DNA from: Micromonospora sp. NBC_01699
GTDB taxonomy: Bacteria; Actinomycetota; Actinomycetes; Mycobacteriales; Micromonosporaceae
Assembly (NCBI RefSeq): GCF_036250065.1
Contig: NZ_CP109199.1
Span: 3,348,001-3,412,000, forward strand
Length of the DNA: 64,000 nt
Direction of reading: 5' to 3'
Each line of letters begins with the position of its first letter. Position 1 is the stretch's first letter. Position numbers and translations under genes: made by a program. This document shows, piece by piece, positions 2 through 61,414 of the stretch. The notes below the pieces were generated by a model. The model ran no database searches, was not told where the DNA came from, and saw only the letters and a program-made list of their open reading frames with translations.

Positions 2-3000
2 CTGGACGAGAGCTGGTTCGCCGAGGGCCTGGCCGCGAAGACCCGGACCACCCTGGCACTCGCCGACGCGCTGGGCGTACGCCAACTGGACTTCCTGGCG
101 GTGTTCTCCTCGCTCCAGTCGTTTCTCGGCAATCCCGGCCAGGCCGCGTACGCCGCCGCCTGTACCGCCCAGGATTCGATCGGGCACGCGCTCGCGGCCC
201 GGTTGCCCTATCCGGTCCGGGTCCTGAACTGGGGGCCCTGGGCCGGCTCGGCGCTCACCGAGCAGCACCGGGACCGGCTGACCGCGGCCGGTCTTCACCC
301 GCTCCCACCACGGACGGGAATCGAGGCATTGACCGTCGCGCTCGGCCAGCAGGAGGTTCAGGTGGCAGTGGTGTCGGGTACGGACGGCGCGCTGGCCGGC
401 ATCGGTGTGTCGACGCCGGCCGGGGAGGACGCGCCCGGGGAGACGCCCTGGCGCGAGGCCATGACCGCGGACCTGCTGGCGTTGATGCACGAGGTGGCGG
501 GGCTGCGGGTGGGTGAGCTGGCGCCGGACGACGAACTTGGCCGGGTCGGCTTCGACTCGATCATGTACACGAAGCTCAGCCACCAGGTGAACGTGCGCTG
601 GGACCTCGGCGTGACGCCGGCGGCGTTCTTCGGCGTGGCCACCGCCGGCGACCTCGTGACCAAGATCGTTCAGGAGTACGGCCCCACCCTCGCTATCCGG
701 CACCGCCAGGCGCCACCCGCCAAGCAGACCGCGCCACCATCGCCACCACCACCGCCACCAGCGGCACCACCGCCACCAGCGGCACCACCGGCACCACCGG
801 CACCACCGGCACCGCGCCGGTCGGTACCGCCTTCCGTGCCGGGCACCGGCGACACCCCGGACGCCGTCGCGATCGTCGGGATGGCCGGGATGCTGCCGGG
901 CTCCGACGACCTGGCCGAGTTCTGGGCCCATCTCGTGGCCGGGGACGACCTGGTCACCGAGATCCCGGCGGACCGGTGGGACTGGCGGCGCATACACGGC
1001 GACCCGGAGCCGGGCCAGTTCCGCACCACGGCCCGCTGGGGCGGTTTCATGCGCCGGGTGGATTTGTTCGACCCACACTTCTTCGGCATCTCACCCACCG
1101 AGGCCGTGGCGATGGATCCGCAACACCGGCTGGTGCTGGAGGCGGCGTGGACGGCGATCGAGGACGCCGGCATCCGCCCCTCCGCCCTCGCCGGCACCGA
1201 CACGGGTGTCTTCATCGGCAGCAGCACGTACGACTACTTCGAGTTGCAGCACGCCCTGGGTGTGCCACTCGACGGGTACAACACCGTCGGCCGGGCACAC
1301 GCCATCCTGACCAACCGCGTGTCCTACCTGTTGGACCTGCACGGTCCGAGCGAGACCATCGACACCGCCTGCTCGTCCTCGCTCGTCGCCGTACACCGCG
1401 CCGCCGACGCGATCCTCCGGGGAGAGTGCGAGGTCGCGCTGGCCGGCGGCGTGAACGTGATCGCGTCGCCGACGCTGTTCGTCGACATGAGCCAGGCCGA
1501 CATGTTGAGCCCGGACGGCCGCTGCCGGACCTTCGACGCCAGGGCCAACGGCATCGTCCGGGCCGAAGGCGCCGGGATGGTGGTGCTGAAGCGACTGGGC
1601 GCGGCGATCGCCGACGGCGACGTCATCCACGCGGTGCTGCGGGGCAGTGCGGTGAACCACGGCGGCCGCACCAACTCGCTGACCGCGCCGAATCCGGTGG
1701 CCCAGGCCGCCTGCATCGTGAAGGCACATCGCCGGGCCGGCGTGGACCCGCGGACCGTCACCTATGTGGAGACCCACGGCACCGGCACCGAGCTGGGCGA
1801 TCCGGTCGAGGTCGAGGGGCTGAAGGCGGCATTCACCCAGCTGTACGCCGATCACGGCGTCGCGGCCGCGGGGCAGCACGTCGCACTCGGCGCGGTGAAG
1901 AGCAACACGGGCCACCTCGAAGCGGCCGCGGGCGTCACCGGGCTGATCAAGGTGCTGCTGGCGATGCGGCACCAGGAACTCCCCGGAAACCTGCACCTGG
2001 AGACGCTCAACCCGCACCTGCGCCTCGACGGCAGCCCGCTGCGGGTCCTGCGTGACCGCGAGCCGTGGCGCCGGGTCAGGACATCCGACGGCGCCGACGC
2101 GCCACTGCGTGCCGGAGTCAGCTCGTTCGGTCTCGGCGGGGTCAACGCGCACCTGGTGTTGGAGGAGTACCGGCCGGAGCCGGCGGTCGGTCGCCCCGGC
2201 CCGTACCTGTTCGTGCTGTCGGCGCGCAGCGCCGACCGGCTGCGCGGCTATGCCGAGCGGCTCGCCCGCTGGATGCACGGCACCGAGCGCCTCGATCCGG
2301 CCGCACTGGCCTACACGTTGCAGACCGGTCGGGACATGTTCTCCGAGCGGCTCGCCGTCGTCGCCGACGACGCTGGTGGCCTGGCGGCGAGCCTGGAGGC
2401 GTGGCTGGCCGGCACGACCCCCGCCGGCGTGTTCGCCGGGAACGGTCGGGGCACCAGCACCGCCCTGCTGCTGGACGGGCCCGAGGGACGTCAGTACCTG
2501 CGGGCCGTGGTGGACGCCGGCAAGGTCGACAAGGTGGCCCGGTTGTGGGTCGACGGCGCCGCGATCGACTGGGTCGAGCTGTGGCCGGGTACGGCTCCGC
2601 GACGTGTGCCGGCACCGACCAGTCCCTTCGCCCGGGAGAGCTACTGGATCACCCCGGGACCCCGGTTCGACCAGGTGCAGGTCGGCGGTACGGGACTGGT
2701 CGGCGTGGATCCTGACCACGGCGTCGAACCCGTCGCCGAGCCTGAGCCCGAACCCGTCGCCGAGCCTGAGCCCGAACCCGTCGCCGAGCCGGTGGGGGTC
2801 GCGGCGCTGGGCGGCGGCGATCCGGAGACGGCCGTCCGGCAGCACGTTCGCGGATTGCTCGCCGCACACCTGGGGGTGGCGCCGGACCGCTTGCCGCCGG
2901 ACCGGGTGTTGTCCGACGCCGGGGTGGACTCGCTGGGCCTGCGCCGGCTCAGCCGACGCCTCGGTGCCGCCTACGGCGTGGACGTACCGGCCCGCATGTT

Positions 3001-3190
3001 CGGTGTCGGGCAGACAGTGCGCGTACTGGCGCGTTCGGTGTTCGAGGCGTACGGGCCCCTGCCGGCGGCGGGTGAACCCGAGCCGACGCCGGCCGCCAAC
3101 GGCCTCGGCGCCCTCCTGGCGGGGCTGCGCGACGGATCCGTCCGGGTGGACGACGCCCTGGCCGAGCTCCAGCGGGGGACCACCCGATGA
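2..3190 (+). CDS. Trans-AT type I PKS, 5'-truncated: KR(end)-ACP-KS-ACP (modules 4-5)
   Basis: The reading frame is open from base 2, so the gene begins left of the window. Order seen: the end of a ketoreductase (Ser near 107, catalytic Tyr codon 149-151, in a YAAAC context), an ACP (phosphopantetheine Ser codon 557-559), a proline-rich linker, a complete ketosynthase (Cys codon 1370-1372, His in VETHGTGT, KSNTGH), a KS-linker ending near 2650, a repeat linker, and a second ACP (Ser codon 2930-2932). There is no AT, so both ACPs are loaded in trans. Module 5 is bare KS-ACP and should leave a beta-ketone. In kirromycin this carbon is the hemiketal and this ACP receives ethylmalonyl. The C-terminal stretch (LRDGSVRVDDALAEL) looks like a helical docking element matching the start of the next protein. 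The stop overlaps the next start (ATGA). It resembles KirAII. Confidence 0.93.
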   Translation: MDESWFAEGLAAKTRTTLALADALGVRQLDFLAVFSSLQSFLGNPGQAAYAAACTAQDSIGHALAARLPYPVRVLNWGPWAGSALTEQHRDRLTAAGLHPLPPRTGIEALTVALGQQEVQVAVVSGTDGALAGIGVSTPAGEDAPGETPWREAMTADLLALMHEVAGLRVGELAPDDELGRVGFDSIMYTKLSHQVNVRWDLGVTPAAFFGVATAGDLVTKIVQEYGPTLAIRHRQAPPAKQTAPPSPPPPPPAAPPPPAAPPAPPAPPAPRRSVPPSVPGTGDTPDAVAIVGMAGMLPGSDDLAEFWAHLVAGDDLVTEIPADRWDWRRIHGDPEPGQFRTTARWGGFMRRVDLFDPHFFGISPTEAVAMDPQHRLVLEAAWTAIEDAGIRPSALAGTDTGVFIGSSTYDYFELQHALGVPLDGYNTVGRAHAILTNRVSYLLDLHGPSETIDTACSSSLVAVHRAADAILRGECEVALAGGVNVIASPTLFVDMSQADMLSPDGRCRTFDARANGIVRAEGAGMVVLKRLGAAIADGDVIHAVLRGSAVNHGGRTNSLTAPNPVAQAACIVKAHRRAGVDPRTVTYVETHGTGTELGDPVEVEGLKAAFTQLYADHGVAAAGQHVALGAVKSNTGHLEAAAGVTGLIKVLLAMRHQELPGNLHLETLNPHLRLDGSPLRVLRDREPWRRVRTSDGADAPLRAGVSSFGLGGVNAHLVLEEYRPEPAVGRPGPYLFVLSARSADRLRGYAERLARWMHGTERLDPAALAYTLQTGRDMFSERLAVVADDAGGLAASLEAWLAGTTPAGVFAGNGRGTSTALLLDGPEGRQYLRAVVDAGKVDKVARLWVDGAAIDWVELWPGTAPRRVPAPTSPFARESYWITPGPRFDQVQVGGTGLVGVDPDHGVEPVAEPEPEPVAEPEPEPVAEPVGVAALGGGDPETAVRQHVRGLLAAHLGVAPDRLPPDRVLSDAGVDSLGLRRLSRRLGAAYGVDVPARMFGVGQTVRVLARSVFEAYGPLPAAGEPEPTPAANGLGALLAGLRDGSVRVDDALAELQRGTTR
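703..825 (+). repeat. Proline/alanine-rich linker from short CCACCA/CCGGCA-type repeats
   Basis: Low-complexity repeats of 3-9 bases encode runs such as PPPPPPAAPPPP between the module-4 ACP and the module-5 KS. It is an interdomain spacer inside the coding sequence and is prone to replication slippage. It is not a CRISPR array or an intergenic repeat. Confidence 0.85.
2726..2790 (+). repeat. 24-bp in-frame tandem repeat, 2.7 copies
   Basis: Units start at 2726, 2750 and 2774. The first two are identical and the third is a 17-base partial copy. They encode the acidic linker EPVAEPEP between the module-5 KS and its ACP. The exact identity of the units suggests recent duplication. A similar acidic linker made of a different repeat occurs near 18.2 kb. 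Confidence 0.9.
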
Positions 3191-6100: not shown

Positions 6101-7761
6101 CCGCGCTGTCCGTCGACGACCTGGTACGCCGATACGGTCACCGTACCGAGACGGTGACCGGTCCGGCCGGCGACGGGACGCTGCTTGCGGACCTGCGGGC
6201 GCTGTCGGCGGGCGTGGCCGGGGTGCCGCCGGAGGAGATCCCGGTCGATCGCCCGCTGGGCGAGGCCGGCTTCGACTCGGTCGGCTTCACCCGGTTGGCG
6301 ATGGCCCTGCGGACCCGCTTCGGTATTGCCCTCGCGCCCACGGTCTTCTACGCCTATCCCGCGCTCACCGCGCTCGCGGCCCACCTGGCCGACCGCCACC
6401 CGGACGCGTTCGGGGCGCCCGGACAACCAGCCGGTGTCCGGCTGAGCGAGCCCGCCGCATCGGCCGCGGTGACCGGCTACCCGCCGGTGGCGATCATCGG
6501 CGTCGGCGGACGGCTGCCGGCGTCCGGGTCCCTCGGCGAGTTCTGGACCCACCTCGCCGACGGCCGCGACCTCACCGGTCCCTACCCGCTGGAGCGGGGC
6601 TTCTCCGCACAGGTGTTCCCCGAGCGCTTCCGTGGTTCCTTCGTCCGGGACGTGGACTCGTTCGACGCGGCGTTGTTCCGGATCTCGCCGCGGGAGGCGG
6701 CACAGATGGATCCGCAGCACCGACTCCTGCTGCACGCCGCGCACGAGGCCATGCTCGACTCCGGCTACGCTCCCGCCGGGCTGGCGGGCAGCCGTACCGG
6801 GGTCTTCGTCGGCCTCAGCGGGGCCGACTACCTCAGCCTGCTGGGCCCCGGCTCCCCGGAGATGGGTGATCACTTCCTGATCGGCAACGTCGCCTCCATC
6901 GCGGCCAACCGCATCTCCTACCTGTACGACCTGCACGGCCCCAGCGCGGTCTACGACACGGCCTGCTCCAGTTCGCTGGTGGCGATCCACCGTGCGGCTC
7001 GGGCGCTCCAGCACGGGGACTGCGAACTCGCCCTGGCCGGCGGCGCGAACCTGCTGCTGTCCCCGTACGGATTCACCGGGCTGCGCCGCGCCGGGATGCT
7101 CAGCCCCGACGGGCGCTGCAAGACCTTCGACGAACGGGCGGACGGCTACGGCCGGGGCGAGGGCGTCGTCCTCCTGGCACTCAAGCTGCTCGACCGGGCA
7201 CTGGCCGATGGAGACCCGGTGCACGGGGTTTTGATCGGCTCGGCCGAGAACCACGGTGGGCACACCCATTCGCTCACGGTGCCCAACCCACAGGCCCAGC
7301 GGGACGTCCTGATCGCCGCGCACCGGTCGGCGGCGGTCTCCCCCGACACGATCGGCTACATCGAGGCCCACGGCACGGGGACGCCGCTCGGCGATCCGAT
7401 CGAGGTCGACGCGCTCCGGGACGCCTTCCGACAGCTCTACGACGACTGGCGGATCCCGGTCGTCCCCGGACGGACCGGGCTCGGCTCGGTCAAGTCGAAC
7501 ATCGGTCACCTGGAGGCGGCCGCCGGTGTCGCCGGCGTGGTGAAGGTGCTGCTGGCCATGCGGCATCGCCTGCTGCCCGGTCTGGTGGGCCTCGGCACCC
7601 CGAACCCGATGATCGATCTCACCGGCAGCCCGTTTCGGCTACAGGTCGAAGCACAGCCGTGGGAGCCGCCTGACGGCGTACCGGCACGAGCCGGTGTCAG
7701 CTCCTTCGGCATGGGTGGCAGCAACGTACACGTTGTCGTGGCGGAAGCGGGGGAACGTTGA
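3187..7761 (+). CDS. Hybrid NRPS-PKS: C-A(Gly)-PCP-KS (module 6 and KS of module 7)
   Basis: 1524 residues. An N-terminal helical docking segment (residues about 4-30) is followed by a condensation domain (HHLITDG, codons from 3682), an adenylation domain (about 488-965; YTSGSTGEPKG, NMYGPTET, YRTGDLG, PNAKVD), a carrier domain (Ser1031 in GFDSV) and a ketosynthase (about 1099-1520; Cys codon 6964-6966, EAHGTGT, KSNIGH). My alignment to GrsA gives pocket residues D-I-L-Q-L-G-M-I-W-K, a glycine-type code, so glycine should be added to the polyketide acid as an amide. The KS carries the IGNVASIAANRISY stretch seen in KSs that follow amino-acid modules. Its module is split: DH, KR and ACP lie on the next protein. 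The gene overlaps its upstream neighbour by 4 nt and its downstream one by 1 nt. It resembles KirAIII. Confidence 0.95.
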   Translation: MSPALREVLAAVAAGELPDEIAESLLRGLINPAPEPGPYPLSRGQAALWAIHASDPGTTSYNLPLGLWLGDQVDPDVLAEALVAVVDRHPGLRITVRLDGTVPVQEVTDRPAEVFRLDLTQVTDTEFAARLRGLVHLPFDLEQDALHRMWIIAGPGGAALLLLVFHHLITDGVSSHLLLRDIVACYDALAGTGVLPPIEPAAPYRDFVRWQQTMLDGPEAGAHRRWWLERLAGASSAPVLNAIADRRRAGPAPRDTGAMVQIRLPETTWTAVRDTARAAGLTPFSVVLGAFAALLQRHSGHRDISVMVPTDGRPTQRFDRTVGYLINPVVVRVDCDPGRTCAQLMSAVQDHMVQAEEYAAYPFASVVGDLRQTSDTGASFDIGFYLQQGVGGDQDMAAGQTVFRDALGLTQEGENPLVVEVVLRGSAALVYFKYDRDLFDRATVERLAEHYRLLLEAITTDPGRTVADLDLTTPAERTLLEGVNATYAERPHDVTAADLVLNRAARIPDRVAVVDADGSLTYAELAGRVHALARTLRDRDVGRGDLVGVLSGRRAALIVALLAVQTVGAAYVPLDPDFPVARLAHVATDAGLAAVLVDPEFGDRLPDDAPGARIPLGDPGSVTPGEPVACRDTDLAYVLYTSGSTGEPKGVEVSHGNLVNFLTAMADRPGCAEDDVILAVTTAGFDIAGLELLLPLTRGATVHIAPAGVVRDGFALAELLDASGATIVQATPATWQMLLAAGWAGHLPRLLCGGEAMSAELAAALLDRCGELWNMYGPTETTIWSSVLRVRRNRPITVGTPIANTTFHLVGPDGGPVPFGAPGELLIGGDGVARGYRGRPALTAERFVGTGQAGARRYRTGDLGRWSDTGEMVLLGRTDRQIKLRGHRIELGEIEAAVRRTGAVDEARVVLREDSPGHPRLVAFVVAPPDVAATIAARIGAWLPDYMIPSRTVALTSLPLTPNAKVDVAPLTALSVDDLVRRYGHRTETVTGPAGDGTLLADLRALSAGVAGVPPEEIPVDRPLGEAGFDSVGFTRLAMALRTRFGIALAPTVFYAYPALTALAAHLADRHPDAFGAPGQPAGVRLSEPAASAAVTGYPPVAIIGVGGRLPASGSLGEFWTHLADGRDLTGPYPLERGFSAQVFPERFRGSFVRDVDSFDAALFRISPREAAQMDPQHRLLLHAAHEAMLDSGYAPAGLAGSRTGVFVGLSGADYLSLLGPGSPEMGDHFLIGNVASIAANRISYLYDLHGPSAVYDTACSSSLVAIHRAARALQHGDCELALAGGANLLLSPYGFTGLRRAGMLSPDGRCKTFDERADGYGRGEGVVLLALKLLDRALADGDPVHGVLIGSAENHGGHTHSLTVPNPQAQRDVLIAAHRSAAVSPDTIGYIEAHGTGTPLGDPIEVDALRDAFRQLYDDWRIPVVPGRTGLGSVKSNIGHLEAAAGVAGVVKVLLAMRHRLLPGLVGLGTPNPMIDLTGSPFRLQVEAQPWEPPDGVPARAGVSSFGMGGSNVHVVVAEAGER

Positions 7762-42910: not shown

Positions 42911-42985
42911 CGCCAACTGATGGCCTTCGATAAAGCGGAGAGAATCGCTCGGACATCTATCTTCGACAATCAGGAGAATTGCGAG

Positions 42986-51208: not shown

Positions 51209-52408
51209 GTGTCAGAAACCGTTCCTGTCGTCGACGGTCTGCCCATGATCCGTGGTGGTTGCCCGTTCGACCCGGCGCCCCAACTCGCCGAACTGCGCCG
51301 GGACCATCCCGTCGCCCGGATGGTGTTCCCGGACGGCCACGTCGGTTGGCTGGTGACCGGCTACGGCGAGGTGCGCCGGCTGCTGGCCGACCGTGGGATG
51401 AGCTCGCGCGGTGACCTGCTGCGTACGCCCATCCCGTTGCCCATGGCCGGGGACCGGACCGAGGTGGCGCCGGGGATGTTCACGGCGATGGACCCACCGG
51501 ACCACACCCGGTACCGGCGCCAACTGACCGCGTGGTTCTCGGCCCGGCGGACCCGCTCGCTGGAACCGCTGCTGGCCGCCAGCGTGGAGCGGCACCTGAA
51601 CGCGATGATCGCGTCGGGTGGTCCGGTCGACCTCGTCACGGCCTTCGCGGAGCCGGTCGCCGCGCTGGCGATCTGTGAACTGCTGGGCGTCCCGGCCGCC
51701 CAGCGCGAGGTGTTCAGCAGGTCGATCAGCGCGCTGTTCACCGTGCACTCCAGCGCCGAGGAGGCCATCGCCGGCTGGCAGAACATCGGTGGCCTGCTGA
51801 TGGGCCTGATCCATGCGAAACGAGCCGAACCCACCGACGACCTGCTCGGTACCCTGGCCGCCGACGACAGCCTCAGCGACCAGGAGCTTGCCACCATCGG
51901 CAGCGTGCTGCTCGTCGCCGGCTACGACACCAGCAAGAACATGGTCGCATTGGGCACGTTCGCCCTGCTGGAACATCCCGAGCAGTACGCCGCGCTCGTC
52001 GCCGACCCGGCGCTGGGGGAGAAGGCGGTCGAGGAACTGCTGCGTTACCTGACGATCGTGCACGCGGGCTCGATCCGCGCGGTCGGTGCGGACATGGAGT
52101 TCGAGGGGCACCGGTTCGCCGCCGGGGACGCCGTGTCGCTCTCGCTCGCGGCGGCCAACCGGGACCCGGCGCTCTGCGATGAACCCGACCGTCTCGACAT
52201 CACCCGCGAGCCGCTGCCCCACCTGGCTTTCGGCCACGGCATCCACCAGTGCGTGGGTCAGCCGCTGGCGCGGTTGGAACTGCGGCTCGTGTTCGAGATG
52301 CTGGCCCGCCGGCTACCGGGGCTGCGCCTGGCGGTGCCCGCCGAGCAGGTCCCGACCACCCCCGAAATGATCATTTACGGCGTACGCAAGCTCCTGGTGA
52401 CGTGGTGA
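51209..52408 (+). CDS. Cytochrome P450 hydroxylase
   Basis: 399 residues from GTG 51209, chosen because AAGGAGGAG lies about 5 nt upstream. It shows the I-helix AGYDTS, the ExxR motif (EELLR) and the heme loop [10 protein letters not shown] with Cys348. It is a soluble class I bacterial P450 that needs a ferredoxin not encoded here. It lies between the AT-AT-ER gene and panD. It should hydroxylate the polyketide after or during assembly; in kirromycin two P450s (KirOI, KirOII) add ring hydroxyls. Which position this one takes cannot be told from the sequence. Confidence 0.92.
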
Positions 52409-52422
52409 ACGGAGGAAACGTG

Positions 52423-52839
52423 TTGTACCGCGAAATGCTCAAGTCGAAGATCCATCGCGCGACGGTGAAGCAGGCCGACCTGCACTACGTCGGGTCGATC
52501 ACCATCGACTCCACGCTGATGGCCGCCGCGGATCTGCTGCCCGGCGAGAAGGTTGACGTCGTCGACATCGACAACGGTGCCCGCCTCAGCACGTACGTCA
52601 TCGGGGGTCCGGCCGACAGCGGCATCATCGGCATCAACGGCGCCGCGGCCCGGTTGATCAGCCCGGGCGATCTGATCATCATCATCTCGTACGCCGCGAT
52701 GGCCGAGGAGCAGGCCCGTTCCTACCGACCCAGCGTCGTCTTTGTCGACGCCGACAACCGTCCGGTACGGATCGGCTCCGACCCGGCCGAGGTGCCCGAC
52801 GGCGTCGAGCTGATGCGCGGCGACACCGTCAGCGCATGA
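52423..52839 (+). CDS. panD: Aspartate 1-decarboxylase (beta-alanine supply)
   Basis: 138 residues. It converts L-aspartate to beta-alanine, the building block of the terminal NRPS module. The ADLHYVGS motif holds the Gly24-Ser25 bond that self-cleaves to make the pyruvoyl cofactor. I chose TTG 52423 because it gives exactly this numbering and lies 6 nt after GGAGGA; GTG 52420 is the alternative and only 3 nt away. The remaining sequence ([19 protein letters not shown]-like, ISYAAMAEE) is normal for the family. Its presence inside an antibiotic operon, overlapping the next gene by ATGA, marks it as a pathway copy (compare KirD). Confidence 0.95.
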
Positions 52840-53828
52840 CCGATCTTCATCCGGCGAACTCGGAGACCGCAATGAGCGACCCTGACGTCATGACCGCCTT
52901 CACCAGCGGCCTCGCGGACATCAATCTGGACGAGTCCAGCACCCCGCGTACGGGCGCGCGGGCGGCCGGGATGAAGTCGGCCAGCGCTTCCATCTACGAC
53001 ATGGCCGCCACCCTGTCCGGCAGGGGCGACCTGTGGAACTGGGGCATGGACGACCCTACGCTCGTCGCGGAGATCCAGGCCCTGCTCCCCGGATTCACCG
53101 AGTTCGGCACGGACGGCTTCAGCGAGCAGTTGTACTACCTCGCCCTGCGGGACCTTCCGATCGGCCTCGACGACTACGCCGGTCGGGTGGTCCTGGAGGT
53201 CGGCTGCGGAATGGGGGAGGGGCTGAACTTCCTGTCCCGGATCGCCCACGGCGCCCGGATGACCGGGCTTGACCTGTCGCCCAGGGCGGTCGCCAGGGCC
53301 ACGGCGACGCTATCCCGGGGTGAGGACCTGCGCTTCGTGCGGGGCGACGCAGAAGAACTGCCCATCGAGGACGGTTCGGTGGACATCCTGGTCAACATCG
53401 AGAGCTCGCACACGTACCCCGATCTGGAGCGCTTTCTCCGCGAGGCCGAGCGCGTGCTGCGGCCCGGCGGGATACTCACGCACATCGACGTGTTCACGCG
53501 GCAGCGCTTCCGGACGATGCGGCGGATCACCGAGGAGATCCACGGGCTGAAGTGGATCGCCGACCACGACATCTCCGCCGAGGTCCGCGCGGCGGTGCGT
53601 CGGCGGATGGCCCCGGACAGCCACTTCCGGCGCGTGCTGGACAGGCAGCGGATGAACCCGTTGGTGCGACGGATCGCCGCGCACAGCCAGATCCTCATGT
53701 TCGGCGGCATGTTCGCGGGCTACCAACCGCCCACCTCCATCAGGGTCCTGAGCAAGCTGGGCATCGTGCCGTGGATGAGCGGGCTGCCGATGGAGAGCTA
53801 CCGGCACCAGGTCGCCGTCCGCACCTGA
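52836..53828 (+). CDS. Class I SAM-dependent methyltransferase, second in cluster
   Basis: 330 residues from ATG 52836, which overlaps the panD stop. ATG 52872 has a better ribosome site (GGAGA) and may be the real start, trimming 12 residues. It has the SAM-binding motif [11 protein letters not shown] near residue 116, the acidic motif GLDLSPRAV, and [13 protein letters not shown]. The overall pattern is that of phthiotriol- or sterol-type methyltransferases. Kirromycin itself needs only one O-methyl, so this enzyme may add another methyl, for example on the pyridone nitrogen as in aurodox, or on a hydroxyl. The substrate is unknown. Confidence 0.85.
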
Positions 53829-53860: not shown

Positions 53861-55204
53861 GTGGTCGCACGGCTCTTCGCCGTCGCCGCCGACACCGACG
53901 ACGGCCTGCTCGCGGCGCTGCGTTGGCACGCGGATCGGATCAGGGCGGGCCGGGACCTGCCCCCACTGGCCCGGTACTGCCAGGATGCCGGGGTCCGCAC
54001 CGCCGGTCGACCGCACCGGGTGGGCTTCGCCGTCGACTCGTACGACGACCTGGCGACGCGGCTGACCGAGGTACTCGCGGGGGAGGTCGACCGCGTCCCG
54101 GCGGAGTTCGGGGCGCGTCGCCCCGGCCTGGTGTTCGTCTTCGCCGGGCAGGGCGCCCAGTGGCCCGGGATGGGACTGGAGTTGCTGGCCACCGAGCCGG
54201 TGTTCCGGGCCGCGCTGCGTCGCTGCGACGAGCAGGTCCGGCAGTTCGCCGGCTTCTCCGTGACCGAACAGTTGGGGCTCGACCCGGCGGCGTCCCGGCT
54301 GCACGAGATAGACGTGCTGCAACCGACGATGGTGTCGGTGCAGATCGCCTTGGTGGCGCTGTGGCGCGACTGGGGAGTGACGCCCGACGCCGTGGTCGGC
54401 CACAGCATGGGGGAGATCCCCGCCGCGTACGCCGCGGGGGCGCTGACCCTGCCCGATGCCATGCTGATCGCGTGCCGGCGCAGTGCCCTGCTGCGCCGGA
54501 TCACCGGCAAGGGCGCGCTGGCCACCACGGAGCTGTCACCGGCGCAGGCGCATGCGCTGGCTGCGGCGAGCGCGGGGAGGATCAGCGTCGCGGGGGAGAA
54601 CAGTCCCCGGTCGACGGTGCTGGCGGGCGACACCGAGTCGCTCGCCGCGCTGGTCGACGATCTCAACCAGCGTGATGTCTACTGCCGGATAGTCCGCGGT
54701 ACGGTCGCCTCGCACAGCCACTACGTCGACGAGTTGCGGGACGACCTCGACGACGCCCTCCGCTCGTTGGCCCCGACGCCGACGCGGTTGCCGATGTACT
54801 CGACGGTGACGACGGAACGGGTGCCCGGCACGTCACTCGGATCCGGGTACTGGATGAGAAACCTGCGCGAACCCGTCCGGCTCGCCGCCACGGTGCGGCG
54901 TCTCGCCGAGGACGGTCACGAGGTCTTCGTCGAGATCAGTACCCACCCGGTGCTGCTCAGCAGTGTGCGGCAGACGCTGGCGAGCGCCGGACGTCCGGGG
55001 CAGCTGGTGTCCTCCGGCCGCCGGCGGGACGAGCGCCGGGCAATGCTGTCGTCACTCGGCACGCTGTACGCGTGCGGTCGCGACCCGCACTGGCCGGCGC
55101 TCGCCCCACCGGGTCCCGTTCCTGCCCTCACCCCGTACCAGGCCGCTGTCCTGGACGCCGTACGGTCCCGACGGTCGGCCGTGGTGGCGGTGGGTTCAGG
55201 ATGA
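53861..55204 (+). CDS. Stand-alone trans-acyltransferase, probably ethylmalonyl-specific
   Basis: 447 residues from GTG 53861, after GGGAGGG. An N-terminal segment of about 85 residues precedes a single AT domain (FAGQGAQWPGMG, Ser182 in GHSMG). The specificity loop is VASH (282-285), neither HAFH (malonyl) nor YASH (methylmalonyl), which fits a larger extender. With a CCR gene nearby and an AT-less KS-ACP module that makes the ethyl branch in kirromycin, I infer that it moves ethylmalonyl from CoA to the ACP at 2930, as KirCII does. It ends the second operon. Its last 9 nt overlap the end of the convergent gene on the other strand. Confidence 0.85.
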   Translation: MVARLFAVAADTDDGLLAALRWHADRIRAGRDLPPLARYCQDAGVRTAGRPHRVGFAVDSYDDLATRLTEVLAGEVDRVPAEFGARRPGLVFVFAGQGAQWPGMGLELLATEPVFRAALRRCDEQVRQFAGFSVTEQLGLDPAASRLHEIDVLQPTMVSVQIALVALWRDWGVTPDAVVGHSMGEIPAAYAAGALTLPDAMLIACRRSALLRRITGKGALATTELSPAQAHALAAASAGRISVAGENSPRSTVLAGDTESLAALVDDLNQRDVYCRIVRGTVASHSHYVDELRDDLDDALRSLAPTPTRLPMYSTVTTERVPGTSLGSGYWMRNLREPVRLAATVRRLAEDGHEVFVEISTHPVLLSSVRQTLASAGRPGQLVSSGRRRDERRAMLSSLGTLYACGRDPHWPALAPPGPVPALTPYQAAVLDAVRSRRSAVVAVGSG

Positions 55205-55753
55205 GGGCGCCGGACCGACCTGTGGGACGAGCCGGTACCGGCCCGACTTCCGGTCCAGGGACCCGGCGTCGACGAGGGACCGCCGCAGGGATACCACGTC
55301 CACCGGGCTGCCCTCACACCACGGCCGGAGCCTGTCGGTCACGGTGCGCTCGTCGTACTCGTCACCGGGACCGAAGGTCGTGTCCGCCACGTGGCGGAGC
55401 ACGGCCCGGCGGCTTTCGTCGTCCTGCTCGGGCAACTGGACCAACAGACCGCCGCGGATGTAGCCGCGCAGCCGGGGGTCCGGCTGTGCGGCGGCTTCCT
55501 CTTCCTCCTCGCGACGCCGGGCCAGGTCTGCCGCCTCGGCGAGAACCTCCTCGTCGACGGCCAGCCGTCCGGGGCCCTCGGCAACGAGCAGGCCCGCCTC
55601 GAAGAGCTGCCCGATGGCCTCGGCGGCCTGTGGAGCGGCGAGGCCGGACGCGTCGAGGATCTCCGAGGGCTTCGACGCGCCCAGGGACACGGCCGAGAAC
55701 ACGCGACGGTGGGTGGGGTCGGAAAGGAGGATCGCGAGTGCTTCTGGCGTCAT
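55196..55753 (-). CDS. DUF2087-family protein with N-terminal HTH-like region
   Basis: 185 residues. Residues about 1-75 look like an ArsR-type winged helix (LSDPTHRRVFSAV, SKPSEILDASGLA). The C-terminal part has the DUF2087 features (DERTVTDRLRPW, DVVSLRRSLVDAGSLDRKSGRYRL). It is possibly a small regulator or nucleic-acid-binding protein. Its start overlaps the stop of the next upstream gene (ATGA), so it is the last gene of the export operon. Its role in the pathway is unknown. Confidence 0.8.
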   Translation of the reverse strand: MTPEALAILLSDPTHRRVFSAVSLGASKPSEILDASGLAAPQAAEAIGQLFEAGLLVAEGPGRLAVDEEVLAEAADLARRREEEEEAAAQPDPRLRGYIRGGLLVQLPEQDDESRRAVLRHVADTTFGPGDEYDERTVTDRLRPWCEGSPVDVVSLRRSLVDAGSLDRKSGRYRLVPQVGPAPSS

Positions 55754-56082
55754 CGTCCCCGCCGCCGGATCTTGATGCTGTCGAGGTCGGTCGCGACGGA
55801 CTCAAGGTCCTGGAAATCGGCACCGAGCGCCCGGATGGCGGCCGCGGCGAGTGCTTCCGCCCTGCCGATCACCACCGCCTCCTTTTCCTCCTCGGTGGCC
55901 GGGACGAGGCACCGGAAGGTGAACATGAGCAGGGCCCGCTCGTAGGTGACGGTGCCGTCGAGGGTGAACCTGGCCTGGAACAGGTTGTGCTCCTCGGCCT
56001 CGGCGAGCAGCCTGGCCCGCTGGCCGTCGTCGAGCGGCGCGAACTTGCCGCGCACGATGACCTGGTAGGTCTTACTGGACAT
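55750..56082 (-). CDS. Small conserved protein, probably DUF6204 family
   Basis: 110 residues. It begins TYQVIVRGKFAPLDDGQRARL and contains RFTLDGTVTYERALLMFTFRC. I associate this pattern with DUF6204, but from memory only. It has no signal peptide, membrane segment or catalytic motif that I recognise. It lies 30 nt after the pump gene and overlaps the DUF2087 gene, so it is co-transcribed with both. Function unknown. Confidence 0.78.
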   Translation of the reverse strand: MSSKTYQVIVRGKFAPLDDGQRARLLAEAEEHNLFQARFTLDGTVTYERALLMFTFRCLVPATEEEKEAVVIGRAEALAAAAIRALGADFQDLESVATDLDSIKIRRRGR

Positions 56083-56112: not shown

Positions 56113-57783
56113 TCAGGACATCGTCGGTCGCGGCGGTTGGCGCGGCAGGAAGAACAGGAGGCAGATCACCGCCGCCAGCCCACCGGCCGCCCAGTACATC
56201 GCCTCGCTGAAGGTGGCGATGAACGTCCGCTTGTGGATGTCGGTGAGGGTCGCTTCGATCGTGGCCCGCTGGTCGGGGGCGCCGTCCGCGGCGAGGGTAC
56301 GACAGCTGTCCGGTACGGCCGTGAGGTCCGCCTGACCGAGCGAGTCGGTGGCGCAGGTCCTGATCGCCGCCGACTGCGGTGCCGCTGCCTGGACGGCCGA
56401 CACGACCCGGTCCGCCTGCGGCCCGGCGTTGCTGGCGAGGGCGGAGAAGAAGATGCCGCCGATGATCGCCACACCCAGGGCGGCGCCCAGCTGCCCGGCC
56501 GCGTTGATCAGGCCGGACGCGGCACCCGCCTCCCGGGGCTGGACCTCGGTGAGGGTCATGCCGGTCAGCGGCGCGAGCAGCATGCCCATGCCCGAGCCGA
56601 GGAGCAGCATCGGCGCCACGGCGTGCCACGAGGTGATCGCGGAGCCGACCTGTTGGGCGGTCCAGGCGTAGAGCAGGAGGCCGGCCAGCATCATCAGCGA
56701 GCCCGCGAACAGGCAGTTGCGTCCGTACCGGGGGAACAGCTTGCGTACGGCGAGGTTGCCGGCGATCGGGACACCCACCGAGAACGGGATGGCGGTCAGT
56801 CCGGTGTGCAGGGCCGACCAGCCGAGTCCACCCTGGAGGTAGAGCGTCCAGCTGAGGAAGAAGCCCGCCGGAATGCAGCTGAAGAGCAGTTGGGTGCCGA
56901 CGCCGGCGCCGAACGTCCGGATCCGGAACAGCGACAGCACCACCAGCGGCGACCCGTCCTTGCGGGTCTTGTAGTGCTCGTAGAACACGAACAGCACGAG
57001 AACGGGTACGGAGGCGACGAGCGCGATGATGCTCCACCCGGGCCAGCCGAGTTCTCGGCCCTGGAGCAGCGGCAGCAGCAACAGCAGCAGTCCGACGATC
57101 GCCAGGACCATGCCGACGATGTCCAGCCGGGTGGCGCGCGGCGACCTCGACTCACGCATCCACAGGCCGGCGGCGACCAGTGCCGCTATGCCGATCGGCA
57201 GGTTGACCGCGAAGATGGTCCGCCAGCCCAGGCCGAACGGGTTCCAGTGGATCAGCACCCCGCCGGCGAGCGGTCCGGCGACGATGGCCAGGCCGATCAT
57301 GCTGGCGTACAGGCTGACGACCCGGCCGATCTCCTGCGGCGGGAATGTGACGTGGATGATCGCCAAGACCTGCGGCACCATGATCGCGGCGGCGACGCCC
57401 TGCAACATCCGGGAGACCACCAGCATCTCCGCGCTCGGGGCGAAGGCACACAGGGCGGAGGTCAGCACGAAGCCGGCGACCCCGGTCAGGAACATCTTCT
57501 TACGACCGAAGATGTCGCCGAGTCGCCCGCCGGTGATCAGGATGACCGCGAAGCACAGCGTGTAGCCGACGGTCACCGCCTGGATGGCGGCCGACGAAGC
57601 GCCGAGATCCTCCTGAATGCTCGGAATCGCCACGGTGACGATGTTGACGTCGAGCAGGTCCATGAAGGTCGCGACGAGCAGGACCATCAGCGCCAGCCAG
57701 CGTTTCGGGTCCAGCTCGGGGGTGTCGACGACAGGCGGATCGACGGCCGGGGCCGGCCGTGCCGTCTGCACTTCCTCGCTCAT
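56113..57783 (-). CDS. MFS drug efflux transporter, DHA2 type (14 membrane segments)
   Basis: 556 residues. ATG 57783 lies 8 nt after GGAG; GTG 57792 would be too close to that site. It has many hydrophobic segments, the MFS motif GGRLGDIFGRKK after the second segment, and the DLLDVNIVTVAIPSIQ stretch typical of DHA2 proton-antiport exporters of the EmrB/QacA type. It is likely the export and self-protection pump for the antibiotic. It lies directly behind the TetR gene and is presumably repressed by it. No resistant EF-Tu gene is in the window, so export may be the local resistance route. Confidence 0.92.
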   Translation of the reverse strand: MSEEVQTARPAPAVDPPVVDTPELDPKRWLALMVLLVATFMDLLDVNIVTVAIPSIQEDLGASSAAIQAVTVGYTLCFAVILITGGRLGDIFGRKKMFLTGVAGFVLTSALCAFAPSAEMLVVSRMLQGVAAAIMVPQVLAIIHVTFPPQEIGRVVSLYASMIGLAIVAGPLAGGVLIHWNPFGLGWRTIFAVNLPIGIAALVAAGLWMRESRSPRATRLDIVGMVLAIVGLLLLLLPLLQGRELGWPGWSIIALVASVPVLVLFVFYEHYKTRKDGSPLVVLSLFRIRTFGAGVGTQLLFSCIPAGFFLSWTLYLQGGLGWSALHTGLTAIPFSVGVPIAGNLAVRKLFPRYGRNCLFAGSLMMLAGLLLYAWTAQQVGSAITSWHAVAPMLLLGSGMGMLLAPLTGMTLTEVQPREAGAASGLINAAGQLGAALGVAIIGGIFFSALASNAGPQADRVVSAVQAAAPQSAAIRTCATDSLGQADLTAVPDSCRTLAADGAPDQRATIEATLTDIHKRTFIATFSEAMYWAAGGLAAVICLLFFLPRQPPRPTMS

Positions 57784-57840
57784 TGGTTGCACTCCAGTTC
57801 TTCCGTGGGTCGGGGTCGGCCGGAGCGGCCGTCCCCGGGC

Positions 57841-58512
57841 TCATGCGCGAGGGGTGCCGTCTTCGGGGTCGGGCGGGTCGGTGGGCTCGGTCGCACCGGT
57901 ACGGGCCAGCGCGGTCCACGACCTCATGAGGAGGTCGACCACGTCCATCACGCTCCCGGCGATGCTGTCGGCGGGGGAGAGCGCGCGTTGGATGGACAGT
58001 CCGTCGTCCAGGGCGTGCACGATCAGCGCCAGCAGTTCCACCGGCGCGGGCGGTGGGACCGAGCGGGCGGCGAAGCCCTGCCCGAGCGCCTGGGCCATCG
58101 CCGCACGGGAACGCCGCTCGCGATCGGCCAGCAGCGGCAGCATCTCCGGGTCCCGCAGTCCGTAGAGCCAGAGTTCGGTACGCAGGGCCAGCCAGCTCGC
58201 GAAGTTCCTGTCCCGTTCGCGGTGCCAGCTGCGCAGGTGCTCGATCGTCTCCTCGAACGAGCCTGCCCGCTGACTGAGCGCCTGGACCTCCTCCAACTCG
58301 TGCTCGGTCCGTTGTTCCAGCAGGGCCAGGACCATCTCGTGCTTGCCGTCGAAGTTGCCGTAGAACGCGCCTCGGGTGTAGCCGGCGCGTTCGACGATCT
58401 GCTCGACCGAGGTGCCGTTGACGCCGCACTCGGCGAACAGTTCGGCGGCCGCGTGCAGCAGTTCCCTTCGGGTGATCTCACGGCTCTCCTGCCGGGTCAG
58501 CCGTTTATTGAT
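57841..58512 (-). CDS. TetR/AcrR-family repressor of the export operon
   Basis: About 223 residues. The helix-turn-helix is clear (LLHAAAELFAECGVNGTSVEQIVERAGYTRGAFYGNF), followed by a helical ligand-binding region. The start is a problem. No in-frame ATG, GTG or TTG lies near the strong GGAGGAGG site (58522-58529). The codon best placed after it is ATC at 58512-58510; CTG 58500-58498 is next. An in-frame GTG at 58620 would run through the operator and lacks a ribosome site. The gene is divergent from the P450 at 58648 and is followed by the pump gene after 57 nt. It probably senses the cluster product and controls both directions. Confidence 0.88.
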   Translation of the reverse strand: MNKRLTRQESREITRRELLHAAAELFAECGVNGTSVEQIVERAGYTRGAFYGNFDGKHEMVLALLEQRTEHELEEVQALSQRAGSFEETIEHLRSWHRERDRNFASWLALRTELWLYGLRDPEMLPLLADRERRSRAAMAQALGQGFAARSVPPPAPVELLALIVHALDDGLSIQRALSPADSIAGSVMDVVDLLMRSWTALARTGATEPTDPPDPEDGTPRA

Positions 58513-58539
58513 GGTGATCGACCTCCTCCGTGAGACTCG

Positions 58540-58647: not shown

Positions 58648-59889
58648 ATGAGCGATCGAATGGGGATGATGGTGACCAGAGCGTTCGACTGGACGGATGT
58701 CGAGTTCGATCTGTCCGACGTGAACTTCGTGACCGACCGGGAGGCCGGGGAGCGCTGGCTCGGCGCCCCTCGCCCGGTGTGCCCGGGCCGGTTCTCCGAC
58801 GGCAACGACGTGTACGTCGTCACGCGGTACGAGGCGGTCCGCAGCCTGTTCGCGGACTCGCGGGTCAGCAACCACCCGCCGGAGGGGGTACACCTCGACA
58901 GCATGCGCAAGCGCGGTGTGCCCGAGGAACTGCTCAAGTACTTCGACTCCACGATCATGACCATGGTGCCGGAGGACCATCGCCGGGTGCGTTCCCTGAT
59001 CGACAGGGCGTTCTCCGTGCGCCGGGTCCGTACGCTCCGCCCCCGGATCGAGAGCCTGGCCGACGATCTCCTCGATCGGATGGACCCGGCGGGGGAGGCC
59101 GATCTGGTCGCCGACTACGCCCATCCGATCTCCACCACCGTGATCTGCGAGCTGCTCGGCGTTGATGACGAGCACCGGGACCGGTGGCTGAAGTGGACGG
59201 AGGCGTTCACGACCTTCGTCCGTCCGGACCCCGTACTGCTGCCGCCCGCGCTGCGCGGCATGGTCGACACGGTCGTGAAGCTGATCCGCGCGCGTCGTGT
59301 CGAGCCCGGTGACGACCTGATCTCCGACCTGGCCCGGATCAGCGACGAGACCGGGAAGCTCGACGAGGTCGAGTTGGTCGCCCTCGTGCTCGTCCTCGTG
59401 CAGGCCGGCCTCGACACGGTCCGGCACTCCATCTCCCTCAGCTTCTACAACCTGCTGACCCACCCCGACCAGCTGGAGTTGGTCAGGACACAACCCGAGC
59501 ACACCGTCCGGGCGGTGCGGGAGCTGATGCGCTACGCCGGCCCGATCAAGATGGCGCTGCCGCGCTTCGCGGCGGAACCGATAGAGGTCGACGGGGTCAC
59601 GATCCCGAAGGACGGCCAGATCCAGCTCGTGGTGGGTGCCGCCAACAACGATCCGGAGCGGTTCGCGGACCCACGGACCCTGGACGTCACCCGGTCCGAC
59701 AATCCCCAGCTCAGCTTCGCGGCCGGGGACCACTACTGCCCGGGAGCGGCCCTCGCGACGGCGGAGACGGAGATCGCGCTGAACAAGTTGTTCGCCCGGT
59801 TCCCCGGCGTGCGGCTCGTCGCCGATCCGGAGGAGGTGGGTCCGAGGTTCCTCCGGGCCGTCTCCCGTCTGCCCGTCCGGCTGGCGTGA
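58648..59889 (+). CDS. Cytochrome P450 hydroxylase, second in cluster
   Basis: 413 residues from ATG 58648 (weak GAAGG upstream). ATG 58594 is possible but begins only 13 nt after the operator, and 58660, 58663 and 58666 are alternative internal starts. It shows the I-helix AGLDTV, the ExxR motif (RELMR) and the heme loop FAAGDHYCPG with Cys364. It differs clearly from the P450 at 51.2 kb, so it probably acts at another position. Placement opposite the TetR gene suggests separate, product-responsive control. It resembles the KirOI/KirOII pair in role. Confidence 0.9.
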   Translation: MSDRMGMMVTRAFDWTDVEFDLSDVNFVTDREAGERWLGAPRPVCPGRFSDGNDVYVVTRYEAVRSLFADSRVSNHPPEGVHLDSMRKRGVPEELLKYFDSTIMTMVPEDHRRVRSLIDRAFSVRRVRTLRPRIESLADDLLDRMDPAGEADLVADYAHPISTTVICELLGVDDEHRDRWLKWTEAFTTFVRPDPVLLPPALRGMVDTVVKLIRARRVEPGDDLISDLARISDETGKLDEVELVALVLVLVQAGLDTVRHSISLSFYNLLTHPDQLELVRTQPEHTVRAVRELMRYAGPIKMALPRFAAEPIEVDGVTIPKDGQIQLVVGAANNDPERFADPRTLDVTRSDNPQLSFAAGDHYCPGAALATAETEIALNKLFARFPGVRLVADPEEVGPRFLRAVSRLPVRLA

Positions 59890-60028: not shown

Positions 60029-61414
60029 ATGAAAGGCATTACCAGCGCCATCCTCAGTCAGAACCTGACGTCGGACGACTTCGCGGCGCTGCCGATCCCG
60101 GAAAGCTATCGTGCGATCACGCTGCACGCGGACGAAGTGGAACTCTTCTCCGGGGTCCCGGTCCAGGACCGGGACCCGCGTAAGTCGGTGCACCTCGACG
60201 ACGTCGCCGTCCCGGAGGTGGGGCCCGGCGAAGCGCTGGTGGCGGTGATGGCCAGCTCGGTGAACTACAACACCGTGTGGTCGTCGCTCTTCGAGCCGAT
60301 GCCGAGCTTCCGGTTCCTGGCCCGGTACGGCAAGCTGTCACCGCTCGGCCGCCGTCATGACCAGCCCTACCACGTGATCGGCTCGGATCTCGCGGGCGTC
60401 GTACTGCGTACCGGGCCGGGCGTCTTCGCTTGGCGGCCCGGCGACGAGGTCGTGGCGCACTGCCTCTCGGTGGAGTTGGAGTCGCCCGACGGGCACGGCG
60501 ACACAATGCTCGACCCGGACCAGCGCATCTGGGGATACGAGACCAACTATGGCGGCCTGGCCGAACTGGCCCTGGTCAAGGCGAACCAGCTGATGCCCAA
60601 ACCCGCGCACCTGACCTGGGAGGAGGCCGGCACGCCGGGGCTGGTCGCGTCGACGGCGTACCGGCAACTCGTTTCCAGGAACGGCGCCGCGATGAAGCAG
60701 GGCGACAACGTGCTGATCTGGGGTGCCTCCGGTGGCGTGGGCGCGTTCGCGACGCAGTTCGCGCTGGCGGGCGGGGCCAACCCGGTCTGTGTGGTGTCCA
60801 GCCCGACGAAGGCGGCGATCTGCCGGGCGATGGGCGCCGAGGCGGTCATCGACCGGGCCGCGGAGGGATTCGAGTTCTGGAAGGACGAGCACACCCAGAA
60901 TCCCGCGGAGTGGAAGCGGTTCGGCCGCCGGATTCGTGACCTCACCGGCGGGGAGGACGTCGACATCGTCTTCGAGCATCCCGGCCGGGACACCTTCGGC
61001 GCCTCGGTGTACGTCGCCCGCAAGGGCGGCACGATCGTGACCTGCGCGTCCACCTCCGGCTTCCGCCACGAGTACGACAACCGTTACCTGTGGATGTCAC
61101 TCAAACGGATCGTCGGATCCCACTTCGCCAACTACCGGGAGGCATGGGAGGCGAACCGGTTGATCGTCAAGGGAAAGATCCACCCCACGCTGTCCGAGAC
61201 GTACGCCTTGGAGGACACGGCCCAGGCGGTGTACGACGTCTACCGCAACCGGCACCTCGGCAAGGTCGGGGTGTTGGCGCTGGCACCCCGGGAGGGACTG
61301 GGAGTCCGCGACTTCGCCATGCGCGAGAGACATCTGGACGCGATCAACCGCTTCCGGGTTCGGCCGACCGCCGACCGGTGCCGAACTCCGCAGGCGGGCG
61401 GATTCGCGTTCTGA
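60029..61414 (+). CDS. ccr: Crotonyl-CoA carboxylase/reductase (ethylmalonyl-CoA synthesis)
   Basis: 461 residues, ATG after GGAGGAG. It reductively carboxylates crotonyl-CoA with NADPH and CO2 to ethylmalonyl-CoA, the extender for the ethyl branch. The nucleotide motif is GASGGVGAFA. The CO2-pocket residues known from the Kitasatospora enzyme fall at the same numbers here: Asn81, Glu171 and His365 are kept, but residue 170 is Tyr instead of Phe (IWGYE). The length is normal plus a short C-terminal tail. The 139-nt gap before it holds no gene that I see. It corresponds to KirN. Confidence 0.94.
   Translation: MKGITSAILSQNLTSDDFAALPIPESYRAITLHADEVELFSGVPVQDRDPRKSVHLDDVAVPEVGPGEALVAVMASSVNYNTVWSSLFEPMPSFRFLARYGKLSPLGRRHDQPYHVIGSDLAGVVLRTGPGVFAWRPGDEVVAHCLSVELESPDGHGDTMLDPDQRIWGYETNYGGLAELALVKANQLMPKPAHLTWEEAGTPGLVASTAYRQLVSRNGAAMKQGDNVLIWGASGGVGAFATQFALAGGANPVCVVSSPTKAAICRAMGAEAVIDRAAEGFEFWKDEHTQNPAEWKRFGRRIRDLTGGEDVDIVFEHPGRDTFGASVYVARKGGTIVTCASTSGFRHEYDNRYLWMSLKRIVGSHFANYREAWEANRLIVKGKIHPTLSETYALEDTAQAVYDVYRNRHLGKVGVLALAPREGLGVRDFAMRERHLDAINRFRVRPTADRCRTPQAGGFAF

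What the first reader, a model, noticed from the sequence alone, without database searches (positions are those of the whole stretch)
2..61414. Kirromycin-type elfamycin cluster readable module by module
After the glycine module, the domains predict: alkene (7), methyl alkene (8), module 9, hydroxyl (10), hydroxyl (11), alkene (12), alkene (13), methyl alkene from a methylmalonyl AT (14), ketone (15), then an amino acid and Dieckmann closure. This matches the kirromycin backbone except at module 9. The accessory set (PanD, AT-AT-ER, single AT, CCR, two P450s, methyltransferases) also matches. The differences found suggest a new family member.
Basis: partly seen in the sequence, partly recalled or inferred. 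Interest (0 to 1): 0.8.

Follow-up and report, generated by a model that had tools for sequence, protein, structure and literature searches.

The report
Kirromycin-family antibiotic gene cluster
This is a complete gene cluster for an antibiotic of the well-known kirromycin/aurodox family, which blocks bacterial protein synthesis; it is a good but ordinary new member, probably making a close relative of aurodox.

Summary
The window holds most of a complete elfamycin cluster; two PKS genes (AI, AII) begin upstream (G000:C1:3332312-3409414 in all). Each reported gene has an ortholog at about 50-89% identity in at least one of six other clusters compared, among them a Streptomyces globosus plasmid cluster whose strain is listed in print with factumycin. 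Tested and met: mixed trans-/cis-AT PKS-NRPS, glycine module, AurB's published code DTLQLGVIWK, NcmC-type Dieckmann cyclase, PanD, AT-AT-ER, second trans-AT, CCR, and upstream modules fitting goldinonic acid.

Two readings need correction. The module 9 mismatch (KS-ACP, no KR or MT) occurs in all seven clusters, so it is no sign of novelty. Module 11 probably does not end as a hydroxyl: AIV//AV has the published layout of a type B dehydrating bimodule, giving the tetraene from which a P450 makes the tetrahydrofuran, as the published delta-kirOII product suggests.

The real difference from the kirromycin set is tailoring: a methyltransferase at the aurM* position and no KirHVI. Best prediction: 30-deoxyaurodox, C44H62N2O11 (heneicomycin, by recall), possibly a known compound. 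I had no product data and no DNA of the kir or aur clusters themselves.

The parts
2..3190 (+). End of AII: KS5 (about 863-2167) and ACP5; ketone module, ethylmalonate expected. AII starts upstream at G000:C1:3338279; AI is G000:C1:3332312-3338254
   Evidence: ethylmalonate role by homology to KirAII-ACP5 (PMC5818483)
3187..7761 (+). AIII: C-A-PCP (glycine-type code DILQLGMIW) and KS of module 7
   Evidence: specificity positions and meaning recalled
7758..26762 (+). AIV, 6334 aa: rest of module 7, modules 8 to 11, KS12 at the end
   Evidence: in six other clusters
16017..18254 (+). Module 9: KS9, linker, ACP9; no KR, no MT
21732..29180 (+). Modules 11-12 across AIV//AV: KS11-KR-ACP-KS12 // DH-ACP-KR, layout of a type B dehydrating bimodule
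   Evidence: definition from PMC8456789
26781..33626 (+). AV, 2281 aa: DH-ACP-KR, KS13-DH-KR-ACP
33623..42724 (+). AVI, 3033 aa: KS14-AT-DH-KR-ACP, KS15-AT-ACP (cis-AT)
42920..43834 (+). HI: Dieckmann cyclase (KirHI type)
   Evidence: NcmC 6e6t, E 7.3e-50
43831..46911 (+). B: C-A-PCP, code DTLQLGVIWK (beta-alanine, as AurB)
   Evidence: AurB motif in PMC9361827
46933..47934 (+). M*: O-methyltransferase-fold enzyme at the aurM* position, probably pyridone methylation
   Evidence: position from PMC9361827
47937..51164 (+). CI: AT-AT-ER trans-acyltransferase (start approximate)
51209..52408 (+). P450a, CYP105-like; proposed KirOI role (start approximate)
52420..52839 (+). PanD, aspartate decarboxylase (start approximate)
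52836..53828 (+). M: KirM-type methyltransferase
53861..55204 (+). CII: single trans-AT (start approximate)
55196..56082 (-). DUF2087 protein (55196-55753) and DUF6204 protein (55750-56082)
56113..57792 (-). MFS efflux protein, FacT-like; likely export and self-protection
57841..58533 (-). TetR regulator (start not settled)
58660..59889 (+). P450b, EryF-like; proposed KirOII role (start approximate)
60029..61414 (+). Crotonyl-CoA carboxylase/reductase (KirN type)

Best explanation
A complete kirromycin/aurodox-family elfamycin cluster. SHOWN from sequence: AI//AII carry KS1-KR-ACP-KS2 // DH-ACP-KR, then KS3-KR-MT-ACP, KS4-KR-ACP, KS5-ACP; AIII a glycine-type module; nine chain-extending KS modules from KS7 to KS15; B with AurB's code; a Dieckmann cyclase; the accessory set. 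INFERRED assembly: acetate starter, diene from the first bimodule, dimethylated hydroxy unit, hydroxyl, ethylmalonate-derived ketone; glycine; alkene, methyl-alkene, a beta-OH/alpha-methyl unit at module 9 with KR and MT supplied by a neighbour, hydroxyl; diene from the AIV//AV bimodule (modules 11 and 12), alkene 13, methyl-alkene 14, ketone 15; beta-alanine; release as a pyridone. INFERRED tailoring: P450a desaturates the pyridone, P450b makes the tetrahydrofuran and C-16 hydroxyl from the tetraene, M adds the O-methyl group, M* methylates the pyridone, no C-30 hydroxylation. Predicted product 30-deoxyaurodox, C44H62N2O11, 794.435 Da (recalled as heneicomycin). It should stall EF-Tu on the ribosome; the MFS pump probably protects the producer. 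Family membership about 0.97; exact product about 0.5.
For: Collinear relatives at about 65-80% identity over the PKS in six clusters; S. globosus LZH-48 is listed with factumycin (PMC9290621) and its MFS gene is called facT at 97.5%. B carries DTLQLGVIWK, the motif quoted for AurB. HI matches NcmC with E 7.3e-50. AT-AT-ER, second AT, PanD, CCR. Bimodule layout twice, KS2 and KS12 paired with support 1.0; delta-kirOII product is a tetraene without the tetrahydrofuran (PMC5818483). P450b 89% to the G271 enzyme, best solved relative EryF, the characterised homolog named for KirOII. PhyH gene after the CCR in G271 has no counterpart in the window.
Against: No product data and no kir or aur DNA was compared. 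Module 9 lacks the KR and MT that the structure needs, and the donor is unknown (one search did not help). The aurodox table calls the P450 listed between aurCI and aurD aurOII, which is P450a's place, so the two P450 roles could be swapped. A PhyH gene elsewhere in the own genome is 30% identical to the G271 protein, so C-30 hydroxylation in trans is not excluded. M. rubida, otherwise a close relative, gave no match for P450b, MFS, TetR or CCR in the 80 kb fetched. Type B bimodules are said to give 2E,4Z dienes; I did not check this against the geometry of kirromycin.
Confidence: 0.8

Rival explanations
1. The product is factumycin-like: C44H62N2O10, one oxygen less, because P450b adds only one oxygen (no tetrahydrofuran).
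For: The S. globosus cluster, whose strain is listed with factumycin, shares M*, P450a, a P450b-type enzyme and no KirHVI in the stretch compared. Factumycin's sodium adduct 801.430 (PMC5785472) fits C44H62N2O10.
Against: The window's P450b is only 50% identical to the S. globosus enzyme but 89% to that of G271, which has a PhyH gene like KirHVI and no M* as in the kirromycin set.
Confidence: 0.2
2. The product is aurodox itself: C-30 is hydroxylated by a PhyH enzyme encoded outside the cluster.
For: Two PhyH genes over the cut-off in the own genome, one 30% identical to the G271 KirHVI-like protein (E 4e-31).
Against: That gene lies about 291 kb away, and the open frame of the other hit is not similar (E 9.6). 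In S. collinus the hydroxylase is in the cluster and its loss gives the 30-deoxy product (PMC5818483).
Confidence: 0.12
3. A new elfamycin skeleton: module 9 leaves an unmethylated ketone, so the middle of the molecule differs from kirromycin.
For: Module 9 is KS-ACP with no KR and no MT.
Against: The same module 9 spacing is in all seven clusters, including the one linked with factumycin and G271. KS10, which takes the module 9 product, groups with KS4 and KS5, which should take beta-hydroxy chains (support 0.98). A KirM ortholog, which O-methylates in this part of kirromycin (PMC5818483), is present.
Confidence: 0.04

Closest known systems
Kirromycin cluster, S. collinus Tu 365 (kir; PMC5818483, sections 3, 13 and 17 read)
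   Same: KirAI-AVI/KirB type assembly, KirCI and KirCII, PanD, KirM, two P450s, CCR, Dieckmann cyclase
   Different: Window has M*, and lacks KirHVI; no PPTase (KirP) gene seen in it. Compared by published gene list only, not by DNA
Aurodox cluster, S. goldiniensis (aur; PMC9361827, sections 4 part 1, 7 and 9 read)
   Same: M* between B and CI; HI-B-M*-CI-P450-D-M-CII order; AurB code; no PPTase
   Different: aur list includes aurHVI; window lacks it. Compared by published gene list only
S. globosus LZH-48 plasmid cluster, linked with factumycin (NZ_CP030864.1; PMC9290621 passage)
   Same: PKS, HI, B, M*, CI, P450a, PanD, M, CII, DUF2087, DUF6204, MFS, TetR, CCR orthologs
   Different: P450b-type enzyme only 50% identical; PPTase, HipA-type kinase and DUF3037 genes present; PKS genes lie after the CCR
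Unnamed Streptomyces genome G271, C1 about 75-154 kb
   Same: Closest overall: same order and 73-80% PKS identity; P450b 89%
   Different: No M*; PhyH gene after the CCR; extra 260-aa ORF between P450b and CCR
Micromonospora rubida NEAU-HG-1 cluster
   Same: PKS, HI, B, M*, CI, P450a (80%), PanD, M, CII, DUF2087, DUF6204
   Different: No match for MFS, TetR, P450b (other than its P450a) or CCR in the 80 kb fetched

Membership tests
Kirromycin-type elfamycin clusters | Trans-AT PKS/NRPS followed by a cis-AT last PKS protein | tested here: met
   ATs found only in AVI among the PKS proteins scanned; discrete ATs CI and CII
Kirromycin-type elfamycin clusters | Glycine module in mid-chain | tested here: met
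   AIII C-A-PCP-KS, code DILQLGMIW; glycine meaning recalled
Kirromycin-type elfamycin clusters | Terminal beta-alanine NRPS with PanD | tested here: met
   DTLQLGVIWK as quoted for AurB; PanD
Kirromycin-type elfamycin clusters | Release by a KirHI-type Dieckmann cyclase | tested here: met
   NcmC match, E 7.3e-50; no thioesterase domain reported in the PKS/NRPS pieces scanned
Kirromycin-type elfamycin clusters | AT-AT-ER, second trans-AT and CCR for ethylmalonate | tested here: met
   actual specificity not tested
Kirromycin-type elfamycin clusters | Upstream modules fitting goldinonic acid | tested here: met
   AI-AII domain order
Kirromycin-type elfamycin clusters | Module 9 like that of kirromycin | tested here: inconclusive
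   KS-ACP shared by 7 of 7 clusters, but KirAIV itself was not available
Kirromycin-type elfamycin clusters | KirHVI hydroxylase | tested here: not met
   No match in window or flanks. Not defining for elfamycins as a class: absent too in the S. globosus stretch compared
Aurodox-type (N-methyl) elfamycins | AurM*-type pyridone methyltransferase | tested here: inconclusive
   Methyltransferase at the same place; AurM* sequence not available
Elfamycins | Product binds EF-Tu | not testable with these tools
   Needs the compound

The most novel reading that the evidence does not exclude
Throughout this family, module 9 cannot do its own beta-processing: the ketoreductase and C-methyltransferase of module 8 (or the KR of module 10) act across on the chain held by ACP9 to make the CH(OMe)-CH(CH3) unit. 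That would be a conserved case of KR and MT domains shared between modules of one protein.
Probability: 0.45. Interest if true: 0.35.

Novelty: new member of a known kind. Interest (0 to 1): 0.22.

Why it matters
It adds a complete, apparently intact elfamycin cluster outside Streptomyces, in a lineage that may be close to Micromonospora (main EF-Tu 93.2% identical to that of M. rubida; an inference). Six comparison clusters let gain or loss of single tailoring genes be read as product changes. It also shows that the odd module 9 and the AIV//AV bimodule are shared traits, which bears on how the tetrahydrofuran forms. If the product is 30-deoxyaurodox the chemistry is probably known, so practical novelty is small.

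Tried and rejected
Rejected: a cyclase-NRPS fusion in ORF 42979-46911; its first ~280 codons are wrong-frame sequence and the real cyclase is 42920-43834. Rejected: module 9 as the mark of a new compound. Rejected: a producer-specific EF-Tu change. The own EF-Tu has Q where E. coli has Y160 (numbering recalled), but so do the main EF-Tu genes of both same-genus genomes, in which no KirCI match reached E<=1e-300. Led nowhere: an ACP tree to find who serves ACP9; the search for kirromycin or aurodox reference DNA (12 of 295 sampled Streptomyces genomes had a KirB-like match at E<=1e-250, of which 3 at 75-79% identity and 9 at 48-50%; of the 10 other than S. klenkii and S. roseoverticillatus, 1 of 10 had a KirCI match at E<=1e-200); a search for a printed account of kirromycin module 9 (20 of 39 papers listed; I opened several but saw none that gives it). 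A search for heneicomycin, kirrothricin, efrotomycin, factumycin and aurodox listed 6 papers, with no occurrence of heneicomycin. A PADLOC scan of the upstream RHS protein found nothing. A Pfam scan of a 65-aa piece of the G271 PhyH protein was too short to find the family; 281 aa did. The S. netropsis cluster was used only for PKS, CI and CII comparison: KirB 34%, only fragments for M and M*, and no reported match for the cyclase.
Full report
WHAT IS THERE. The window is bases 3348001-3412000 of a single-contig genome of 8,280,328 bases. Pfam and NCBIfam scans covered the PKS pieces and accessory proteins. The reported gene run is present: no internal stops in the seven PKS/NRPS frames or in the 22 predicted proteins, two of which lie beyond the cluster. 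AI (1980 aa) and AII (4303 aa) begin before the window. Further upstream lies an unrelated RHS-repeat protein with a CDI-type nuclease domain; downstream lie a VWA/solute-binding-like protein and other genes. So the cluster runs about G000:C1:3332312-3409414.

IS IT MORE THAN CHANCE. Yes. PKS proteins match at 65.7-77.4% in the five named clusters and 73.3-79.9% in G271 (several values are for the longest aligned part; S. netropsis gave no AVI match). Accessory genes match at about 50-89% where found, and not every gene was found in every cluster: S. klenkii and S. roseoverticillatus lack a P450a ortholog (best 37%), M. rubida gave none for MFS, TetR, P450b or CCR in the 80 kb fetched, and S. 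netropsis gave full matches only for CI and CII. S. globosus LZH-48 stands in a published table with factumycin (PMC9290621, passage), and PLSDB labels its MFS gene facT at 97.5%. Frequency: 12 of 295 sampled Streptomyces genomes had a KirB-like match at E<=1e-250, 3 of them at 75-79%; in a set of 41 genomes, the own one included, only the own one had a KirCI match at E<=1e-300.

MODULE BY MODULE. All 14 KS domains keep the Cys-His-His triad. AI: ACP, KS1-KR-ACP, KS2. AII: DH-ACP-KR, KS3-KR-MT-ACP, KS4-KR-ACP, KS5-ACP. AIII: C-A-PCP and KS7. AIV: DH-KR-ACP; KS8-DH-KR-MT-ACP; KS9-ACP; KS10-KR-ACP; KS11-KR-ACP; KS12. AV: DH-ACP-KR; KS13-DH-KR-ACP. AVI: KS14-AT-DH-KR-ACP; KS15-AT-ACP. B: C-A-PCP with D-T-L-Q-L-G-V-I-W-K at the specificity positions (positions by recall), identical to the motif quoted for AurB and beta-alanine in PMC9361827 (section 7 read). 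HI matches the solved Dieckmann cyclase NcmC (6e6t, E 7.3e-50), and the Cys, Asp and His that I take for the catalytic triad are aligned (triad named in PMC4979870, passage).

MODULE 9. KS9 is followed by 319-348 aa before KS10 in 7 of 7 clusters. In the 6 of 7 scanned, Pfam finds only KS linker and ACP above its cut-offs; G271 was judged by length only. The mismatch is thus a shared trait. A tree of 96 KS sequences (7 clusters, S. netropsis without KS14 and KS15) gives one clade for KS3, 8, 9, 13 (support 1.0) and one for KS4, 5, 10 (0.98; 0.74 with KS11 added), so KS10 looks like a receiver of beta-hydroxy chains. This supports reduction of the module 9 product by a KR from elsewhere, and by the same logic methylation by an MT from elsewhere. 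Which one is unknown; an ACP tree did not help. The structure of kirromycin at this position is partly recalled; that KirM O-methylates there is in PMC5818483 (sections 3, 13 and 17 read).

MODULES 11-12 AND THE TETRAHYDROFURAN. PMC8456789 (passages) describes type B dehydrating bimodules as KS-KR-ACP-KS // DH-ACP-KR, with one DH making two alkenes, and names kirromycin among pathways with dehydrating bimodules, without saying in those passages which type or which modules. Both AI//AII and AIV//AV have this layout, and KS2 and KS12 pair in the tree (support 1.0). So the module 11 position should be an alkene rather than a hydroxyl. PMC5818483 reports that the delta-kirOII product is a tetraene without the tetrahydrofuran and without the C-15 and C-16 hydroxyls, two oxygens short of kirromycin. 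Its authors propose hydroxylation at C-14 and C-16 and then allylic substitution. My own inference is that epoxidation of the C14=C15 alkene and attack by the C-17 oxygen would serve equally; I made no search for that idea in print, and these data do not decide.

TAILORING AND PRODUCT. M* sits between B and CI, the aurM* place in the aurodox gene list (PMC9361827 section 4 part 1). P450b's best solved relative is EryF, the closest characterised homolog named for KirOII in PMC5818483; P450a's is CYP105AS1, so I give P450a the KirOI role. Against this, the aurodox table labels the P450 listed between aurCI and aurD aurOII. P450b is 89% identical to the G271 enzyme but 50-52% to those of S. globosus, S. 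klenkii and S. roseoverticillatus, which are 86-98% identical to one another. G271 has no M* match but has, after its CCR, a 286-aa PhyH protein that fits the description of KirHVI. No similar gene is in the window, its flanks, or the fetched stretches of the five named clusters (best E 0.16). The own genome has two PhyH genes elsewhere, one 30% identical to the G271 protein. Together these predict 30-deoxyaurodox, C44H62N2O11, 794.4354 Da, which I recall as heneicomycin; that word was in none of the 6 papers listed.

SELF-PROTECTION. The own genome has one EF-Tu gene over the family cut-off. It has Q at the place of E. coli Y160 and keeps A at 375 (numbering recalled). Q is shared by the main EF-Tu of both same-genus genomes, three of the seven other family members compared and M. 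rubida, so it is a lineage trait. The MFS pump is the likelier dedicated device (inferred).

VERDICT. Kirromycin-like clusters outside Streptomyces are already reported, for example in Saccharopolyspora sp. NFXS83 (PMC10145562, passages) and Kitasatospora setae (PMC11117518, passages). Papers seen only as passages: PMC4979870, PMC5785472, PMC8743542, PMC9394534, PMC6164871, PMC6950810, PMC4307249, PMC8456789, PMC9290621, PMC10145562, PMC11117518. Weber et al. 2008, the primary kirromycin cluster paper, was not seen.

Noticed in passing
L021:11883 to L022:1602 (just upstream of the cluster): Large RHS-repeat protein ending in a CDI-type restriction-endonuclease-like toxin domain; no PADLOC match.
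   Followed up: partly
S. klenkii (L037-L041) and S. roseoverticillatus (L042-L046) clusters: Both have M* but no P450a ortholog and only the 52%-type P450b; this could mean a 5,6-dihydro product of the kirrothricin kind (inferred).
   Followed up: partly
L089, L092, L093 (main EF-Tu of S. roseoverticillatus, S. netropsis, S. klenkii): These carry T where the window's EF-Tu has A at the place of E. coli A375, a site I recall from kirromycin work; whether it is a clade trait was not checked.
   Followed up: no
S. netropsis, L047-L052: Elfamycin-type AI-AV, CI and CII but no cyclase match, KirB only 34%, and an AV frame ending at 1481 aa; perhaps a pyridone-less elfamycin like L-681217, or a sequence break.
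   Followed up: no
G271:C1, about 75-154 kb (L072-L076): Cluster with the kirromycin tailoring set (no M*, PhyH gene after the CCR); P450b 89% identical to the window's although the PKS is 73-80%.
   Followed up: partly
L058-L067: Nine Streptomyces genomes have a KirB-like NRPS at 48-50% identity and no KirCI match at E<=1e-200; one has two copies near opposite ends of its contig. Probably another pathway family.
   Followed up: partly
L026:1-900 (AI residues 1-300): N-terminal stretch before the loading ACP with no Pfam match at E<=0.01; AI has a similar N-terminal length before KS1 in the other clusters. Starter loading is unexplained.
   Followed up: no
L023:4533-6945: Beyond the cluster, a further TetR gene and a divergent MFS gene, apart from the cluster's own TetR/MFS pair.
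   Followed up: no
L078 (G000:C1:3040335-3040877): PhyH gene 30% identical to the G271 KirHVI-like protein, next to what looks by eye like a transposase frame.
   Followed up: partly
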